Below, piece after piece: positions 32,683-42,480 of a DNA stretch of 49,772 nucleotides. The number at the start of each line of letters is the position of its first letter. Position 1 is the stretch's first letter. The notes beneath the pieces were generated by a model. The model was not told the DNA's origin. It was given only the letters and a program-made list of their open reading frames with translations, and did not search any database. The stretch comes from Candidatus Roizmanbacteria bacterium (GTDB taxonomy: Bacteria > Patescibacteriota > Microgenomatia > UBA1406 > GWC2-37-13). The DNA is taken from the NCBI GenBank assembly GCA_902200405.1, contig CABIKN020000012.1, positions 1 to 49,772 of the forward strand, read 5' to 3'. The position numbers were made by a program, and so were the translations under genes.

Positions 32683-33741
32683 TTATTTTTGAACACCGCC
32701 AACCTGGCCAATAAGTCCGTACATTGGGGCAATTATTGCGAGCATCATCCCTCCTACCAAAATACCAATTACGACCAGCATGATCGGCTCGAGAAGGGCT
32801 GTAAGTGATTTAAGAGAGTTTGTTACCTCATAGTCTAGATATTCTGAAGACTCAAGTAATGATTTGTCCAAATGGCCGCTTTTTTCACCGGCTTCGATCA
32901 CTCTGATAATAAGCGAAGGAACGTATTTTTTATACTTTCTAAAAGAGCTTGCCAGGCTTTTTCCCGATGCGACATTTTCTTTTGCATATGCGATCATATT
33001 GAAAATGTATTTGTTGATAACAATATCTTCAACTAATTCTAGTGAGTAGGAAATGTTTACACCTGAACCCAGTAACATGTGTAGGCTTCTTGTCAGTCTT
33101 GTTAGATCAATCTTTTGGATTAGGCCGGAAATTAAAGGAAGCGAAAAAATAAATTGTATCAACTCTCTTTTTCTTGTTTTAAAAAGAAAAAATATAAAAA
33201 TAAATGATATAACTAAACCAACGATTAGCGGAACTGTTGATTTTAAAATAAAATCCGAGAGAAATATCAAAACTTGGGTTGGTAATGGCAGATCAATTTT
33301 TAAGGATAAAAATATCTTGGAAATTTTTGGGATAACAAAGATCAAAATCATTAAAAAAACAGCCGCAAAAACTACCAAAATGAATATAGGATAGGTGAGC
33401 GCCGATTTTACCTTGTCAACGAACTCATTATCCTTTTGCATGTTTATCTTTATCTGCTTCAAACTTGAGTCAAGAGTTCCGGCTTCCTCAGCGGCCTTAA
33501 CTAAATTTATAGTTACCTTGTCAAATATGTTTGAAAATTTTGACAATGAAAGATAGACTCTTTTTCCCTGCTGAATATCACTTCTTAAAACAGTTAAAAA
33601 TATTTTAAAATTTCCTTTAGAGTCTTCAAGCATTGAATCTACCGACTCAACTATTGTAATTCCTGAAGAAAGCATTGTGCTTAAACTAATTAAAAACCCC
33701 ATCTTATCAGAATTGGAAATATCTAGATTTTCAGTTTTCAT
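32683..33741 (-). CDS. pilC: Type IV pilus platform protein PilC (locus 2)
   Basis: A 352-residue GspF/PilC protein, shorter than the locus 1 copy because it lacks the N-terminal soluble domain. It keeps the two GspF repeats (SLSTMLSSGITIVESVDSML and LTRSLHMLLGSGVNISYSLELV) and three membrane helices (about 118-142, 165-190 and 315-340), with ALLEPIMLVVIGILVGGMML at the end. It overlaps pilB2 by 4 nt (ATGA). PilC and PilB copies clearly belong together as a second machine, probably one for each set of pilins. Confidence 0.93.
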   Translation of the reverse strand: MKTENLDISNSDKMGFLISLSTMLSSGITIVESVDSMLEDSKGNFKIFLTVLRSDIQQGKRVYLSLSKFSNIFDKVTINLVKAAEEAGTLDSSLKQIKINMQKDNEFVDKVKSALTYPIFILVVFAAVFLMILIFVIPKISKIFLSLKIDLPLPTQVLIFLSDFILKSTVPLIVGLVISFIFIFFLFKTRKRELIQFIFSLPLISGLIQKIDLTRLTRSLHMLLGSGVNISYSLELVEDIVINKYIFNMIAYAKENVASGKSLASSFRKYKKYVPSLIIRVIEAGEKSGHLDKSLLESSEYLDYEVTNSLKSLTALLEPIMLVVIGILVGGMMLAIIAPMYGLIGQVGGVQK

Positions 33742-35426
33742 TGTATTCCGATCTTGGTAACTCTTAATACTTCTTCAAGTGTTGTCAGACCTTTTTTTAC
33801 TTTAATTAATCCGTCATCAAGCATAGTCGTCATACCATCCGTTATTGCCTGTTTTGCGATCATTTCCGAGTTAGCTTTCCCTACAATTAAAGCTTTAATT
33901 TTTTTCGATATTTCAAGGATCTCAAATATACCTATTCTGCCGGCATAACCAGTATTGTGACAGATTTTACATCCAGCCCCTTTAAATATTGTATATTTTG
34001 GAACATTTCCAAGATTTTTCGTAACGATATCGACAGGTATATTTTTGATCAGTTTTCCCTTTGGGATAGATATAGAACTTTTACACATTTCACAAATTTT
34101 TCTAATCAATCTCTGTGCAATGATCACGTTCACGGTTGAAGCCACTAAAAAGGGTTCAACCTTCATATCTATAAATCTTGGGAGGGCAGTTGCCGCATCA
34201 TTAGTATGGAGCGTTGAGAGGACTAAATGTCCGGTCAATGCCGCATTAACAGCAATCCCGGCCGTTTCAATGTCTCGTATCTCTCCTACAAAAACGATAT
34301 TTGGATCCTGACGAAGTATTGACCTTAAACCCGATGCAAATGTTAGACCGGTTTTGACATTAACATTGATCTGGTTGACCCCCTTAATTCTATATTCGAC
34401 CGGGTCTTCGATAGTGGTAATATTTTTTTCTCTTTTATTAATAATTTTTAAAATTGCATATATGGAGGTGGATTTACCTGATCCTGTTGGTCCGGTTGAT
34501 AATATCATCCCAAAAGATTTTAAAATGGATTCGTTTAACTTAGCTAGATCACGCTCGCTCATTCCAAGATCGATCAGTGAAAATTGACGAGCATGTGTAG
34601 AAAGCAATCTTAAAACAGCTTTTTCTCCGTCTACAATAGGTAAAATAGATACGCGGATGTCCATGGTTTCTTCATCATCATGAAAACGCATCTTACCATC
34701 CTGAGCGCTCATATGTTCGTCTGTCCGGAGATCTGACACTATTTTGATTCTTGTGACTATTCGATCGTGCAGATTAATTGGCAGCTGGACCATGTCATGG
34801 AGCATACCGTCAATTCTGAACCTTATTAGACACTTCTTTTCCTGTGGTTCTATATGGATATCAGAGGCCTTGTCCTGTGAGGCATATTGAATAATTAAGT
34901 TAACGATCTTAATAATTGGTGCATCCTCTTTGATTATAGATTGCAGATCCGAATAGACCTCATTTTTCAGGATCTGATCAAATATCATCTGGAGATCTTT
35001 TCTATAGATAAAAAAAGTATTACTAATATCACGTTCTGTTGCCAAATATGAAATGACCTTCAAGCCAGATTTACGGGCGATCATTTCAAGCAGTGTTTTT
35101 TTATTTGGGTTAGCTAAAGCCACCTTTAGGCTGGTTGCGTCTTTGAAAAAAGGAATAATTTTGTGTTTTCGGGCAATTTTTTCGGGAATAATTCTAAAAA
35201 CGTCTTCGGCAATCGATAGTTTTGCCAGAATGACAAAGGGGATTTTTAAAAAATCTGATATAAGAATGCCTAAATTTTCGTCAGAAATTATATTTTTTTC
35301 AATCAGAGCATCATAAAAGGTAGTGTCAGAATTTTTCAGATATTCAAGTATCTGCTCAATTCCTTTTTCATCGATGAGCTTGTTCTTTATAACTAATTTT
35401 TTTAGATCTTCATCACTAATTATCAT
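33738..35426 (-). CDS. pilB: Type IV pilus assembly ATPase PilB (locus 2)
   Basis: A 562-residue GspE/PilB ATPase. An MshEN-type N-terminal domain (LLEMIARKSGLKVISYLATERDI region near 110-135) is followed by the ASDIHIEPQE motif, Walker A GPTGSGKST, Walker B IVFVGEIRDIET, His box VLSTLHTNDA and the four-cysteine zinc site (CEMC and CKIC). Everything needed for an active extension motor is present. It is joined by ATGA overlaps to the receiver gene upstream and pilC downstream, so receiver, ATPase and platform are translated together. There is no PilT in this locus. Confidence 0.95.
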   Translation of the reverse strand: MIISDEDLKKLVIKNKLIDEKGIEQILEYLKNSDTTFYDALIEKNIISDENLGILISDFLKIPFVILAKLSIAEDVFRIIPEKIARKHKIIPFFKDATSLKVALANPNKKTLLEMIARKSGLKVISYLATERDISNTFFIYRKDLQMIFDQILKNEVYSDLQSIIKEDAPIIKIVNLIIQYASQDKASDIHIEPQEKKCLIRFRIDGMLHDMVQLPINLHDRIVTRIKIVSDLRTDEHMSAQDGKMRFHDDEETMDIRVSILPIVDGEKAVLRLLSTHARQFSLIDLGMSERDLAKLNESILKSFGMILSTGPTGSGKSTSIYAILKIINKREKNITTIEDPVEYRIKGVNQINVNVKTGLTFASGLRSILRQDPNIVFVGEIRDIETAGIAVNAALTGHLVLSTLHTNDAATALPRFIDMKVEPFLVASTVNVIIAQRLIRKICEMCKSSISIPKGKLIKNIPVDIVTKNLGNVPKYTIFKGAGCKICHNTGYAGRIGIFEILEISKKIKALIVGKANSEMIAKQAITDGMTTMLDDGLIKVKKGLTTLEEVLRVTKIGIQ

Positions 35427-35794
35427 TTAGTCTTTGGTAAATGGCTAACTACACTTTTAAGGAATACGTCAAAGTCAAAAAAACTTTTATTGATATATAA
35501 CTTGGCACCAAGATCTAGGGCTTTTTTGATGTCAGTTTCCTGACCAAGAGTAGAGAACACTATGACAGGTAATTTAGACAAAACTGGGTCAGCTTTTAAT
35601 TCAGCTAACACTTCAAAGCCGTCCTTTACCGGCATTATAAGGTCAAGCAAAATTAAATCCGGAAAAAAAGATTTTATCTTTTCAATACCTTCCTTGCCAT
35701 CATTGGCCACCTCAACTTCATACCCAAGATCTTTTAACTTAAGTGAATAAAAATTTTGGAAGAAATGGTCATCTTCTATTATTATAATCTTCAT
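35423..35794 (-). CDS. Single-domain response regulator coupled to pilB2
   Basis: A 123-residue receiver starting MKIIIIEDDHFF. An upstream in-frame ATG exists at 35860, but the 22 extra residues (FPRRRESMDPRLRGDDKR) come from a dispersed palindromic repeat, so 35794 is the better start. D8/D9, phosphoacceptor D51 (LILLDLIMP), the Ser of VFSTLG and the Lys of YINKSFF are present. It has no output domain. The stop overlaps the pilB2 start by ATGA, which implies stoichiometric production with the motor. A direct effect on PilB is inference. Confidence 0.9.
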   Translation of the reverse strand: MKIIIIEDDHFFQNFYSLKLKDLGYEVEVANDGKEGIEKIKSFFPDLILLDLIMPVKDGFEVLAELKADPVLSKLPVIVFSTLGQETDIKKALDLGAKLYINKSFFDFDVFLKSVVSHLPKTK

Positions 35795-35800
35795 ACGCTT

Positions 35801-35852
35801 GTCATCCCCGCGTAGGCGGGGATCCATGGATTCCCTCCTTCGAGGGAATGAC
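35801..35852. repeat. GTCATCCCCGCG...GAATGAC dispersed palindromic repeat
   Basis: Two linked hairpins: CCCCGCGTAGGCGGGG and TTCCCTCCTTCGAGGGAA, bounded by GTCAT...ATGAC. It lies between the receiver start and the Hpt gene, supplying the Hpt C-terminal tail. Other copies are at 38754, 42420, 44509 and 48202. Confidence 0.85.
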
Positions 35853-36140
35853 GTGAACAACTATTAACTTTTCAATTTCTGTCAATATTGCCTCCACATT
35901 AATTTCATTCACTTGAGTATTTTCCAGTTTCGCTTTAAAGTAGGTTTCAAGTTCCAAAGCTTTAAGACCAATATCATCAAAACCCATAAAAAAACTCTGC
36001 CCTTTTAAAGTATGGCAAACTCGATGAAGTGTTTTAACATCAACATCTTTTTGATCTATAAAACTTCGAATTAACCTTATTTCCTCTTGGGCATTTTTCA
36101 AATATAGCGCAGTATATGATTTTAAATCAAAATCAACCAT
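35802..36140 (-). CDS. Hpt phosphotransfer protein
   Basis: A 112-residue helical protein with the Hpt motif HTLKGQSFFMG (phospho-His43) in a four-helix bundle (about 5-98). Residues 97-112 (VIPSKEGIHGSPPTRG) are encoded by the palindromic repeat at 35801-35852, so the native protein was probably about 96 residues. It sits just upstream of the receiver gene with the same orientation. No histidine kinase is in the window, so phosphate must come from an unlinked kinase. Together with the two receivers it suggests a multistep relay that controls pili. Confidence 0.88.
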   Translation of the reverse strand: MVDFDLKSYTALYLKNAQEEIRLIRSFIDQKDVDVKTLHRVCHTLKGQSFFMGFDDIGLKALELETYFKAKLENTQVNEINVEAILTEIEKLIVVHVIPSKEGIHGSPPTRG

Positions 36141-37620: not shown

Positions 37621-37881
37621 CTATTTTAATATTGATAGAGTTGCTTCAACAGATGGATTAGTGGTATTAATTAACTCAATTTTTTCCTTAAATTTTTGTT
37701 TTAATGGAGTCAAAAATTCATCAGCCCATGAAGGAGTCAAGACAATTACCCCATCAAAATTAACGATTATTTTTTCTCCTACTGCTATCTCATTTAATAT
37801 AGGTTGAAAAGCCAACCACGCTTCTTTTCCGGCCGGACGTGATACTAAAGTGGTTCCAAATTTTTTTAACTGAATATTCAT
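37621..37881 (-). CDS. STAS-like DUF4325 protein
   Basis: An 86-residue protein with the DUF4325 core KIIVNFDGVIVLTPSWADEFL (about 38-58); the segment aligns with the beta-strand and the Ser-containing turn of STAS anti-anti-sigma factors, and Ser52 would be at the phosphorylation-like position. Its start overlaps the HTH-GHKL gene stop by 4 nt (ATGA), so the two are made together. By analogy with SpoIIAB/SpoIIAA the partners may bind or phosphorylate each other; this is inference. Confidence 0.8.
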   Translation of the reverse strand: MNIQLKKFGTTLVSRPAGKEAWLAFQPILNEIAVGEKIIVNFDGVIVLTPSWADEFLTPLKQKFKEKIELINTTNPSVEATLSILK

Positions 37882-38609
37882 AATAATTCTTCAAAACTTA
37901 TAATAGCGAAGCATCCGTTGATATTTGTCTCACCTTGTTGAATGCTTAATTCGGAATCGTTCTTTTTTAAGTATAATCGAGCGTTTCCCGTTTGAAAAGT
38001 AAGTGAGAATGGATTTCCCACAATAATTGACCTAACAAATTTTAATCCGTTTCCTCTCGTTTCTGGATACCGACCGGATATTGTTTCAGTAAAAGCGAGC
38101 CTCATTGCTTCGCTAGAATTAATTAGTTCTGGCCGTACTCTCTTTAATGTTGTCAATATTCCTTGTCCGCGATCCGCCAATACTATTTTTCTATTCCTCA
38201 TAGAGTATGAAAAAAATATACCAGGAATATCAGACCAATTACCCAAATTATGATCAAAAGAATTATTCCCAATTTCACCGGCAATAGCAGTAATTAGAGA
38301 TACTATTTCAATAGAAGCAAATTTACTTAACTGCGATTGTAACTTTTCAAGTCGGGCTTGAAAAACATCACGAGTTTGACAGTATGACTCAGGGGTAGGT
38401 TCTGCTGGGTTTTCTGACTTAGCCCAATTTAATGCAACTGCATCAATTTCCAATATAAATTGATCAATGTCAGATCTATTATAAAATCTATGGCCTTTTG
38501 GACCAGTTCTAATTGATCGCAATCGACCAATAAAATCCCATCGTCGGAGAGTATCTATAGATACTCCCAACAATCTGGCAGTTTTTCCTATTGATAATAG
38601 CTTATTCAT
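37878..38609 (-). CDS. MerR-type HTH fused to a GHKL ATPase domain
   Basis: A 243-residue protein. Residues 1-55 form a MerR/excisionase-like HTH (SIGKTARLLGVSIDTLRRWD and the wing KGHRFYNRSDIDQFI). A short coiled coil (80-97) leads to a GHKL ATP-binding domain (100-243). The N box is EIGNNSFDH (E112, N116, H120), G1 is DRGQGI (146-151), and G2 is RGNGLK (185-190). There is no dimerisation-phosphoacceptor His, so it is not an ordinary histidine kinase. It resembles anti-sigma kinases such as SpoIIAB, but is tied to DNA binding. The STAS-like partner follows with an ATGA overlap. Direct repeats lie just upstream of its start. Confidence 0.85.
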   Translation of the reverse strand: MNKLLSIGKTARLLGVSIDTLRRWDFIGRLRSIRTGPKGHRFYNRSDIDQFILEIDAVALNWAKSENPAEPTPESYCQTRDVFQARLEKLQSQLSKFASIEIVSLITAIAGEIGNNSFDHNLGNWSDIPGIFFSYSMRNRKIVLADRGQGILTTLKRVRPELINSSEAMRLAFTETISGRYPETRGNGLKFVRSIIVGNPFSLTFQTGNARLYLKKNDSELSIQQGETNINGCFAIISFEELL

Positions 38610-38618
38610 AGTTATTTA

Positions 38619-38660
38619 TAAACCTATGCATATTTTAACATATCTATGTAAACCTATGCA
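38619..38660 (-). promoter_or_regulatory. Direct repeat TAAACCTATGCA, candidate operator
   Basis: TAAACCTATGCA occurs at 38619-38630 and again at 38649-38660, exactly 30 bp apart (about three helical turns), with a partial ATCTATGT between. The repeats are 10 and 40 bp upstream of the HTH-GHKL start, where an autoregulatory protein would bind. The proximal copy includes TATAAA on the minus strand side, but no clear promoter pair was found. Confidence 0.55.
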
Positions 38661-38753
38661 AGTGCCAAGTAACTACGAGTTGCCAGATATATAATTATCA
38701 CTCAATATTTTGAATATTTAGTATTACAAAGAGACAAATATGCTTAATAAATT

Positions 38754-38839
38754 GTCATTCCCGCGGAGGCGGGAATCCAGACTAAAATATCATTTTATGA
38801 TGTAATTATAGACTGGATCCCCTTCTTCAAGGGGATGAC
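38754..38839. repeat. GTCATTCCCGCG...GGGGATGAC repeat, expanded copy
   Basis: Two halves of the GTCATxCCC element (CCCGCGGAGGCGGG and CCCCTTCTTCAAGGGG) are separated by about 45 bp containing ATATCATTTTATGAT. The ends are GTCAT and ATGAC. The rest of the 38661-38997 stretch is AT-rich with nothing else recognisable. Confidence 0.8.
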
Positions 38840-39532: not shown

Positions 39533-39733
39533 TTATTTTTTCATTAAATCTATTGAAAATAAAATCATTAATACAGAAATTATAAGTATAATAAAAATTG
39601 AAATCAATAGATCTTTGTCAAATAAAAATTTATAAATAATTGGTGTAACAATACTAATAGAAATATTAGCCACAGACGTATTAACAAAGACATCTGCAAT
39701 TACTTTTTTTTGATTTAAATTAAGTTTTTTCAT
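39533..39733 (-). CDS. 66-residue two-helix membrane protein of the lipase cassette
   Basis: Starts MKKLNLNQKKVIADVFVNTS, then two membrane helices (VANISISIVTPIIYKFLF and LLISIFIILIISVLMILFSI) and ends DLMKK. Its start overlaps the lipase stop by ATGA, so it is translated with it. Small two-helix proteins of this design occur in many genomes without known function. It may help export, anchor or inhibit the lipase (inference). Confidence 0.7.
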   Translation of the reverse strand: MKKLNLNQKKVIADVFVNTSVANISISIVTPIIYKFLFDKDLLISIFIILIISVLMILFSIDLMKK

Positions 39734-42405
39734 TTCTTCAAAATATTCTTTCTAAAAACGTAGGCAATTCCTCCTAATATTAGCGAAGTTATTGATGGCC
39801 AAATATAATCCCAAATATTTGATGATTTTGTAATTCCTTTTTTTGTCTCTGTCTGCTTATTTACTTCTGCTGGTGGAGTTATTAATTCCTCTTGACCTGA
39901 GGATATTCCTAAAACATCAGATGAAGTGTCTTTGGATAAAAGAGGACTGCTAACTAATGACTGAATCGGCTGATTATTCGTTGAAGAGTCGGTTGACGAA
40001 GATGAATTTGTAGATTGTGGAATGGATGCTGGTACTAGTGTTGGCGTTGGAGTTGCAGTCGGTGTTGAGGTTGGAATAGGAGTTGCCGTCGGAGAAGGAA
40101 ATATCGAGAAAGCTGTTTGATTGTTATATAGTATATTATAGTCATCAATTTGAGATGAGGCTGGCGATTGAGAGATTTCTCCGTTAATACTTTCCCAAAT
40201 ATCATTATTTTCCGAAATCTGGCCAACGATCACTTCGTATTTACCCTGATCAACTCCCTGGACTTTTAATTCATAATTTCCTGTTTGCGCATCAGGAATA
40301 AAAATAATTCCTTCATTTTCAACATATTCATTTTCATTAAATTCAACCGTCATCGTCGCTGGAGATTTGATCAGGAAAATTAAAGATGTTGAAATTTTTG
40401 TTGTTTGCCCTTCAACAATTTGGTCGTCATCGAAATTGATATTTAATATATTTAGTATTTTTTTAATCGCCTCTTTTTTAGTAATAATCTCTCCGTGATC
40501 AAAATAAAATTTTTCCGAATCAGTATCTTGAGAAGCACTTTTACTTAGAATCGTATAATCACCCAAATCAAAATACGATTCCCGAGGTCTTCCGTCCAAA
40601 TAATTTCCTAATAATTTATCAACAATATTTTGAAGTTCAACGATATAACCCGCCGGAGTGTTATTATCTTTCTCTCCGTAAATTGCCGTAAACAAGAAAA
40701 AGATTTCTAAAAAAGTTTGATTATAGACTGGTAAAAAATTATTTTTAATCGTCATACTATCAATTGAGATTTCGTTGCCCTGAAGATCTTTCAAAAAATT
40801 AAATGTTGGAAATAGTTCTTTTGCTATAGGAAATCTATTAGCAATTGTATCTTTGTCACTTTCTATGATTGATTTATTTAAAACCAGGATTATCTTTTCA
40901 GCCAACCACAAAAATGTATTATCTCTATCGACCTCTCCCGCTTCCAATGGTTTGTAAAACTGAACTGCTCCAAAATGCGGTGAGCCAACTGAAATAATCT
41001 GATTAATCTTGTCCTTATTTTTTTGAGTAAAAATCCGGGCGATCAAGCCTCCCAAAGAGTGTCCTACGATATTTACTTTTTGATTAGGTTCATTATCCCA
41101 AATTTTCGTCTGAAGATAACTATTCAAGTCATTGGTGGTTTTTTCTATTGACTGACGCCAGTCATAAGGAAATAAAAATAGATTAATGTTTTCCTGATAG
41201 CCAATATTTTTTAAAGTATTTATTAAACCATCATATTCTTTAACAAAATTTTGCATCTTCCAGGCAGAATAATCAACCGTTTGATTGTGTAAAATTGCAT
41301 CTCGATTCCATGAGGCCATAAAACCCGGAATGATAATTATGGGGGTAAGAATGTTTGGCGTAGGGGTCGGGTTTCCCGAACCTGATGTTGGAGTGGGAAT
41401 TGCAGTTGGCGTCGGAGTTGATGTGGGAGTCGGTGTTAAAGTTGGAGTTGGTAATAGTGTTGGAGTCGCTGTTGGAGTTTGCGTTGGTGTTGGTGTTGAC
41501 GTCGGGGACAGGCACGCCTGTCCTGTGCATGCCAAATTCAATCTCCAACGTGAATCGCTGCCCAGTCCCGAATAGTATAATTTTAAGCCTCCGTTATCAT
41601 TTAAAACTGAAGGAAAAATTAGGTGTCTTTGATCATAGGGATTATCCCTGGTCAATAAATATCCCTGATCAATAAATACGGAATCACAATTTAATGGTAG
41701 GGTGCTTTTTGCTACTTTTATTCCACTACTGTCTGAACGATGGAAAAATAAATATAGATCATTATTTTCCTGGTAAGGAAAAGGGCCATCGCCGCCGTAT
41801 AAAAATCCATTTGAACATCGTTGCCAAGTAATTAAATCGTCGGAATAAGCCAATTTTATTTTAAAACCGTCTCCGCCCCAAGCTCCGAAAAATAGATAGG
41901 TACGACTATTCTGTTGGAATGGAGACCCGGCAAAGACACCGTTTTTTTCCGAATTGTTATTAATATCAGGCGTTATAACAGGGACGAGATTTGGTGAACA
42001 GTTGAAATTAGAATCGCAAACACTGGAGTAGATTCTGTAAATCGTATTATTATCATATCGAGTAATAAATAGTAGATATCCTGTTTGAGTTTTTAGGACT
42101 CTTGCGTTTGATAGTTCAACGCCAGTATTTAAGATCTCCTTTTTCATCTGCCAGTCAATGCCATTGGCGGATTCAAAATATCCTAAAGAATAATATGTTT
42201 CCGGTGGTCTATGAATAACAAAAATTCCTTTATAAAGATCTCCTTCTTTGAAAATATTAGCTTGAAGTTGACTGGTGTAGCCATTGGTGTACGTAACAGG
42301 AAGGGGATTTTCGGTTACTTTTTCAAACTGAAAGGCAAAAGCATTTTTAACAAACAATAAACAAGTGATTAAAACTAAAATTAATCTAAAAATATTTTTT
42401 AACAT
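39730..42405 (-). CDS. Secreted beta-propeller / LCAT-like lipase, membrane-anchored
   Basis: An 891-residue surface protein. A signal peptide (1-24) is followed by a five-bladed beta-propeller like the GH43/GH32 fold (about 27-295; NARVLKTQTGYLLFITRYD, AGSPFQQNSRTYLFFGAWG, YQENNDLYLFFHRSD). A Pro-Thr linker (about 297-345) leads to an alpha/beta hydrolase of the lecithin:cholesterol acyltransferase type with PIIIIPGFMAS, FPYDWRQSIE, nucleophile GHSLGGL (about 446-452) and VGSPHFGA. A beta domain, a second Pro-Thr linker (about 765-792) and a C-terminal helix plus FRKNILKK anchor end it. The substrate is unknown, but lipid or acyl glycans of a host membrane are possible. A GGACAGGC palindrome (41506-41523) is in frame just before the first linker. 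Confidence 0.85.
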   Translation of the reverse strand: MLKNIFRLILVLITCLLFVKNAFAFQFEKVTENPLPVTYTNGYTSQLQANIFKEGDLYKGIFVIHRPPETYYSLGYFESANGIDWQMKKEILNTGVELSNARVLKTQTGYLLFITRYDNNTIYRIYSSVCDSNFNCSPNLVPVITPDINNNSEKNGVFAGSPFQQNSRTYLFFGAWGGDGFKIKLAYSDDLITWQRCSNGFLYGGDGPFPYQENNDLYLFFHRSDSSGIKVAKSTLPLNCDSVFIDQGYLLTRDNPYDQRHLIFPSVLNDNGGLKLYYSGLGSDSRWRLNLACTGQACLSPTSTPTPTQTPTATPTLLPTPTLTPTPTSTPTPTAIPTPTSGSGNPTPTPNILTPIIIIPGFMASWNRDAILHNQTVDYSAWKMQNFVKEYDGLINTLKNIGYQENINLFLFPYDWRQSIEKTTNDLNSYLQTKIWDNEPNQKVNIVGHSLGGLIARIFTQKNKDKINQIISVGSPHFGAVQFYKPLEAGEVDRDNTFLWLAEKIILVLNKSIIESDKDTIANRFPIAKELFPTFNFLKDLQGNEISIDSMTIKNNFLPVYNQTFLEIFFLFTAIYGEKDNNTPAGYIVELQNIVDKLLGNYLDGRPRESYFDLGDYTILSKSASQDTDSEKFYFDHGEIITKKEAIKKILNILNINFDDDQIVEGQTTKISTSLIFLIKSPATMTVEFNENEYVENEGIIFIPDAQTGNYELKVQGVDQGKYEVIVGQISENNDIWESINGEISQSPASSQIDDYNILYNNQTAFSIFPSPTATPIPTSTPTATPTPTLVPASIPQSTNSSSSTDSSTNNQPIQSLVSSPLLSKDTSSDVLGISSGQEELITPPAEVNKQTETKKGITKSSNIWDYIWPSITSLILGGIAYVFRKNILKK
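41506..41523. repeat. GGACAGGC-AC-GCCTGTCC palindrome inside the lipase gene
   Basis: Eight-base arms around AC, in frame, encoding GQACLS at the propeller-linker junction. It is unrelated to other palindromes here. Confidence 0.7.
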
Positions 42406-42419
42406 ATTTTCTGTATTTT

Positions 42420-42480
42420 GTCATCCCCGTGAAGACGGGGATCCATTCTTGGTCTGGATTCCCTCCTTCGAGGGAATGAC
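42420..42480. repeat. GTCATCCCCGTG...GAATGAC repeat upstream of the lipase
   Basis: CCCCGTGAAGACGGGG and TTCCCTCCTTCGAGGGAA hairpins within GTCAT...ATGAC ends, 15 bp upstream of the lipase start. The hairpin could influence the promoter of the cassette. Confidence 0.85.

What the first reader, a model, noticed from the sequence alone, without database searches (positions are those of the whole stretch)
37621..38660. MerR-HTH/GHKL-ATPase with STAS-like DUF4325 partner: a compact DNA-binding switch
Two overlapping genes (ATGA) encode a DNA-binding HTH fused to a GHKL ATP-binding domain and a DUF4325 protein of STAS-like fold. The GHKL part has N, G1 and G2 boxes but no phosphoacceptor His. In SpoIIAB/SpoIIAA-type switches, a GHKL kinase controls a sigma factor through a STAS partner. 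Here the kinase-like protein itself has an HTH, so the sigma factor may be bypassed and the STAS protein may directly gate DNA binding. The TAAACCTATGCA direct repeats upstream are candidate operators. A defence, phage-lysogeny or stress role is possible, but unknown.
Basis: partly seen in the sequence, partly recalled or inferred. Interest (0 to 1): 0.68.

Follow-up and report, generated by a model that had tools for sequence, protein, structure and literature searches.

The report
CPR-wide self-regulated HTH-kinase/STAS switch
Two overlapping bacterial genes make a DNA-binding protein fused to a kinase-like ATP-binding domain and its small STAS partner; the pair recurs across the ultra-small CPR bacteria, usually with matching repeats in its own promoter, and one amino acid of the DNA-binding part predicts the letters of those repeats, so the self-regulation can be tested directly although what the switch does for the cell is unknown.

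Summary
Gene A (37878-38609, -) is a BldC/MerR-like HTH plus a divergent GHKL domain. Gene B (37621-37881, -) is a one-domain STAS-like DUF4325 protein overlapping it by ATGA. The best 80 relatives of A, nearly all CPR, have B next door in 79 cases; the exception lies at a contig end. About 12% of sampled CPR species carry A. The upstream repeats look like real operators: 79 of 98 HTH-bearing members have 10-bp-phased direct repeats (2 of 98 at anti-phase spacings), against 2 of 12 members without an HTH. HTH residue 19 predicts the operator letters (Asp-CA, Gln/Met-TA, Asn-GG), including in separate lineages. In the window the repeats cover the predicted -35 box, spacer and start, so I infer autorepression. 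B's Ser51 is invariant (80/80) and matches the phospho-Ser position of STAS partners, so kinase-STAS signalling is likely but untested. No neighbour, toxin or immune operon is conserved, and tandem operators were seen only at the pair's own promoter in the genomes searched. Closest known: CapK/CapS (2026), where the STAS protein is the repressor; here the DNA-binding domain sits on the kinase. New variant of a known kind; cellular output unknown.

The parts
37878..38609 (-). Gene A: 243-aa BldC/MerR-like HTH + linker + GHKL domain
38454..38609 (-). HTH of gene A (residues 1-52)
   Evidence: Pfam MerR; BldC structures 6ama/6amk E about 2e-5
38553..38555 (-). Codon of Asp19, the residue that covaries with operator bases (D=CA, Q/M=TA, N=GG)
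37896..38318 (-). GHKL domain (about residues 98-238): N box E112-xxx-N116-xxx-H120, G1 D146-x-G-x-G, G2 R185-G-N-G-L
   Evidence: conserved columns in 78-sequence alignment A3; fold
37621..37881 (-). Gene B: 86-aa STAS-like DUF4325 partner
37729..37731 (-). Codon of Ser51 of gene B, candidate phospho-acceptor
   Evidence: invariant in 80/80; aligns with Ser of the partners of STAS-GHKL kinases
38650..38659 (-). Operator repeat 1, GCATAGGTTT (overlaps the predicted -35 box)
   Evidence: conserved in homologues
38640..38649 (-). Operator repeat 2, ACATAGATAT (in the promoter spacer)
38620..38629 (-). Operator repeat 3, GCATAGGTTT (over the predicted start site)
38656..38661 (-). Predicted -35 box TTGCAT (18-bp spacer)
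   Evidence: read from sequence; same layout in L003, L004, L005
38632..38637 (-). Predicted -10 box TAAAAT, occupying the 10-bp slot left free between repeats 2 and 3
   Evidence: read from sequence; TATAAT/TAGAAT in homologues

Best explanation
An autoregulated kinase/STAS switch that stands alone as a two-gene cassette. Step 1 (supported by covariation): the BldC-like HTH of gene A recognises 10-bp-phased TGCATAGRTT direct repeats in its own promoter. Step 2 (inferred from the position of the repeats and BldC precedent): several A molecules line up head-to-tail over the -35 box, spacer and start site and repress the operon. Step 3 (inferred from motifs): the GHKL domain binds ATP and acts on Ser51 of the STAS partner B, as SpoIIAB and CapK do with theirs. 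Step 4 (inferred, weakest): binding or phosphorylation of B changes how A assembles on the repeats, so an unknown signal lifts repression; B or A then also acts on an unidentified target.
For: A-B adjacency 79/80, the exception L064 ending at a contig end, and adjacent in all 29 HTH-bearing loci fetched from a separate phylum sample (some species overlap). In-phase repeats (10/20/21/30/31 bp) in 79/98 HTH members against 2/98 at anti-phase spacings; 2/12 of members without an HTH (Fisher p 2e-5). Two members with a different HTH (L078, L083) share TTAACxTATGTTAAGAT instead. Residue 19 against operator dinucleotide: D-CA 44/51, Q/M-TA 13/15, N-GG 6/7; highest covariation of all 243 columns (z 14.1, next 4.9); on a GHKL-only tree residue 19 changes about 16 times and Asn with a GG-type operator appears in separate places. 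Ser51 80/80, N/G1/G2 boxes conserved. GHKL part matches STAS-GHKL kinases (E 1e-6) and B matches their partners with the serine aligned (E 7e-7). wHTH-GHKL-DUF4325 single-chain fusions, same domain order. BldC precedent: PMC5859096. CapK/CapS precedent: PMC13373217.
Against: No kinase activity, complex or repression was measured. In the eight fusions aligned the Ser51 position is Ala. Members without an HTH keep B, so DNA binding is not the universal output. No target operon: no conserved neighbours, and exact half-sites outside the own promoter are no more frequent than the reversed control pattern in 10 genomes. G000 and 42 of 47 A-positive genomes have no detected SpoIIE-type phosphatase.
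Confidence: 0.55

Rival explanations
1. Same pair, but the HTH serves only to keep its own level constant; the real output is B (or phospho-B) acting on a protein target elsewhere in the cell (a sigma factor, RNA polymerase or an enzyme), as in anti-sigma partner switching.
For: Members without the HTH retain the GHKL-STAS pair; tandem operators found only at the own promoter, apart from a second partial copy in the same genome; ECF-size sigma hits exist in G000.
Against: No conserved neighbour or sigma gene beside the pair; no SpoIIE-type phosphatase in most carriers.
Confidence: 0.3
2. A toxin-antitoxin or stress module: two overlapping genes, autoregulated through repeats, patchy in distribution, with no fixed neighbours.
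For: Patchy occurrence (47 of 380 genomes); autoregulation; apparently decayed copies; precedent of VapS as antitoxin (PMC13373217).
Against: Neither protein resembles a known toxin in the searches made; no toxin family recurs beside it; members without an HTH persist.
Confidence: 0.12
3. A CapK/CapS-like controller of an adjacent immune operon.
For: Same two families of domains and aligned serine.
Against: No immune operon recurs next to the pair: the 140 nearest neighbours are mostly unrelated genes, with scattered defence-type matches of at most 3 members per model; B has no DNA-binding domain.
Confidence: 0.03

Closest known systems
CapK/CapS (Chambers et al. 2026, EMBO J, PMC13373217)
   Same: GHKL kinase gene directly followed by a STAS gene; HTH at the kinase N-terminus; invariant serine in the STAS protein; transcriptional autoregulation.
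   Different: CapK has an extra STAS domain and its HTH has no known role; CapS carries the wHTH and is the repressor, binding TTAA palindromes; the pair sits beside immune operons. Here the kinase carries the DNA-binding domain, the operators are phased direct repeats, B is a bare STAS domain, and no operon is attached.
VapKSC (same paper)
   Same: GHKL kinase plus STAS partner; B's best PDB sequence hit is VapS 9z7o, E 0.63, not significant alone.
   Different: No PIN toxin gene; N-terminal HTH instead of STAS.
SpoIIAB/SpoIIAA, RsbW/RsbV and RsbT/RsbS partner switches
   Same: GHKL N box with E/N/H pattern (from knowledge of SpoIIAB) and STAS partner with aligned serine.
   Different: No sigma gene in the operon; mostly no SpoIIE phosphatase in carriers; kinase carries its own HTH.
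BldC (Schumacher et al. 2018, PMC5859096)
   Same: MerR-like wHTH; direct repeats of about one helical turn.
   Different: BldC is a 68-aa stand-alone protein on 9-bp repeats; here the HTH is fused to a GHKL domain and the repeats are 10 bp with a readable residue-base code.
wHTH-GHKL-DUF4325 fusion proteins of CPR (L185-L193)
   Same: Same domain order in one chain; DUF4325 profile match E 1.7e-5.
   Different: Different wHTH, GHKL match insignificant by profile comparison, Ser51 position is Ala.

Membership tests
CapK/CapS | GHKL kinase gene immediately followed by STAS gene | tested here: met
   79/80 loci
CapK/CapS | kinase has HTH-STAS-GHKL architecture | tested here: not met
   243 aa; HTH and GHKL with a helical linker, no room for a STAS domain between
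CapK/CapS | STAS partner carries a wHTH and is the repressor | tested here: not met
   B is a single 86-aa STAS-like domain
CapK/CapS | invariant serine in the STAS protein | tested here: met
   Ser51 80/80
CapK/CapS | immune operon adjacent | tested here: not met
   no recurrent neighbour family
CapK/CapS | activation by ssDNA | not testable with these tools
   invariant Trp62 in the linker is only a lead
VapKSC | PIN-domain toxin as third gene | tested here: not met
   no PIN family among the most frequent Pfam matches of the nearest neighbours; no neighbour family recurs
SpoIIAB/SpoIIAA partner switch | GHKL fold with E-xxx-N-xxx-H N box | tested here: met
   comparison with SpoIIAB residues is from knowledge
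SpoIIAB/SpoIIAA partner switch | Ser phosphorylation of the STAS partner | not testable with these tools
   serine conserved and aligned only
SpoIIAB/SpoIIAA partner switch | cognate SpoIIE-type PP2C phosphatase | tested here: not met
   none detected in G000; 5 of 47 A-positive genomes have one
SpoIIAB/SpoIIAA partner switch | cognate sigma factor | tested here: inconclusive
   four sigma-70 region-2 hits in G000, none next to the pair
BldC family | BldC-like wHTH | tested here: inconclusive
   NCBIfam HTH_BldC E 9e-7 but 28.6 bits against a cut-off of 77; PDB 6ama/6amk about 2e-5
BldC family | recognises direct repeats | tested here: met
   phased repeats and residue-19 covariation; binding itself not measured
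BldC family | stand-alone HTH without other domains | tested here: not met
   fused to GHKL
DUF4325 (PF14213) | profile match above curated cut-off | tested here: met
   33.7 bits against 23

The most novel reading that the evidence does not exclude
A CPR-wide one-operon signal switch in which a GHKL kinase carries its own direct-repeat DNA-binding domain and a bare STAS protein gates its assembly on DNA, with a one-residue DNA recognition code legible from metagenomes.
Probability: 0.4. Interest if true: 0.75.

Novelty: new variant of a known kind. Interest (0 to 1): 0.62.

Why it matters
Little is known of regulation in CPR bacteria. This gives a widespread regulator with its operator and a residue-to-base code that can be tested with two proteins and short DNA, and it shows a different wiring of the GHKL/STAS switch just described in immune-operon control.

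Tried and rejected
Defence or mobile context: no conserved neighbours, mostly unrelated genes in the 140 nearest; no viral-contig relatives; in plasmids and phages at most 39% of the protein matched, mainly the HTH. Regulon search with the tandem operator in 8 genomes and the half-site in 10: nothing beyond the control level outside the own promoter, except the partial copy at G000:C67. Search for VapS on plasmids with a 50-aa segment: no match. Profile comparison of A's GHKL with the fusion GHKL: insignificant. SpoIIE phosphatase co-occurrence: none.

Full report
Check of the observation. The two ORFs are where the finding says, on the minus strand, overlapping by ATGA. A has a MerR-type HTH and B is DUF4325 above cut-off. 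No Pfam ATPase model finds the GHKL part, but 81 aligned homologues show conserved N, G1 and G2 boxes, and the model (pLDDT 90) matches GHKL proteins in the PDB by fold. B's model is confident and STAS-like, with modest match scores. The window lies in a 1.18-Mb genome in 85 contigs; its near relatives by this gene are Roizmanbacteria and other CPR.

Conservation. A relative of A occurs at full length in 3 of 57 near relatives, in 47 of 380 sampled genomes of the phylum, and at 206 places in GTDB contigs, of which the best 80, nearly all CPR by title, were kept. B is adjacent in 79 of the 80; the one without it ends at its contig's edge. A is 235-253 aa, B mostly 84-103 aa. Gene order is kept while everything around changes: no neighbour family is shared by more than 7 loci, and the 140 nearest neighbours are a mixture of mostly unrelated genes.

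The operator. Upstream of most homologues stands a direct repeat. In the window the units lie at 38650-38659, 38640-38649 and 38620-38629, 10 and 20 bp apart, over a predicted TTGCAT / 18 bp / TAAAAT promoter (the promoter is read by eye, the consensus scan does not list it). Across 98 HTH-bearing members, 79 have in-phase repeats and 2 have anti-phase ones; of 12 members without an HTH, 2 have in-phase ones. Two members with another HTH share a palindrome instead.

The code. The residue before TLRRWD in the recognition region (Asp19 here) predicts the two bases before TAG: Asp-CA 44 of 51, Gln or Met-TA 13 of 15, Asn-GG 6 of 7. It is the strongest covarying column of the whole protein (z 14.1 against 4.9). 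The tree of the GHKL part alone needs about 16 changes at this residue, with Asn and GG-type operators together in separate places. Shared ancestry inflates the counts, and the test was devised after seeing the pattern, but repeated joint change is hard to explain unless this HTH reads these repeats.

Mechanism. BldC, among the nearest solved HTHs, lines up head-to-tail on direct repeats (PMC5859096); the same is likely here, blocking the promoter. B's Ser51 is invariant and aligns with the serine of STAS partners of STAS-GHKL kinases in the same phylum, whose GHKL profile also matches A's. CapK phosphorylates CapS at an equivalent serine (PMC13373217). So a kinase-substrate relation is likely; gating of A's DNA binding by B is my inference. 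Fusions of a wHTH, GHKL and DUF4325 in one chain argue for contact between A and B, but carry Ala in place of the serine, which argues against phosphorylation being essential to every version. Members without the HTH keep B, so the pair can work without this promoter contact.

What is not known. The signal, any target beyond the own promoter, and the phosphatase. Tandem operators were not found elsewhere above control level in the genomes searched, except at a second, partial copy in the same genome.

Verdict. Ordinary in its parts, new in its wiring and unusually testable. Interest 0.62.

Noticed in passing
L002:36-209 (G000:C67, near contig start): A second copy in the same genome: conserved operator plus HTH (77% identical over 52 aa), then a stop 35 nt from the contig end. 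Truncated gene or assembly edge.
   Followed up: partly
L039, L079, L173, L176: Relatives in which the repeats (at least one unit) remain upstream but the HTH or HTH-to-GHKL segment is missing or out of frame; they look like independent decays or assembly faults.
   Followed up: partly
window 38756-38777, 35803-35850, 42457-42478: Dispersed palindromic element CATTCCCGCNNNNGCGGGAATC and variants: 53 forward and 60 reverse matches in the genome, many counted on both strands, against 0 for the reversed pattern.
   Followed up: partly
L185-L193: CPR proteins of about 340 aa fusing wHTH, GHKL and DUF4325, with Ala at the serine position.
   Followed up: partly
L194-L198: STAS-GHKL kinase plus DUF4325 partner pairs in CPR, resembling the VapK/VapS arrangement, with the serine kept.
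   Followed up: partly
window 39730-42405: 891-aa ORF matching lecithin:cholesterol acyltransferase-like hydrolases (PF02450, 1.6e-16), with PT-rich linkers.
   Followed up: no
window 33738-36140: Neighbouring minus-strand ORFs: an Hpt-domain protein, and by eye a receiver-like protein and a type II/IV secretion ATPase-like protein.
   Followed up: no
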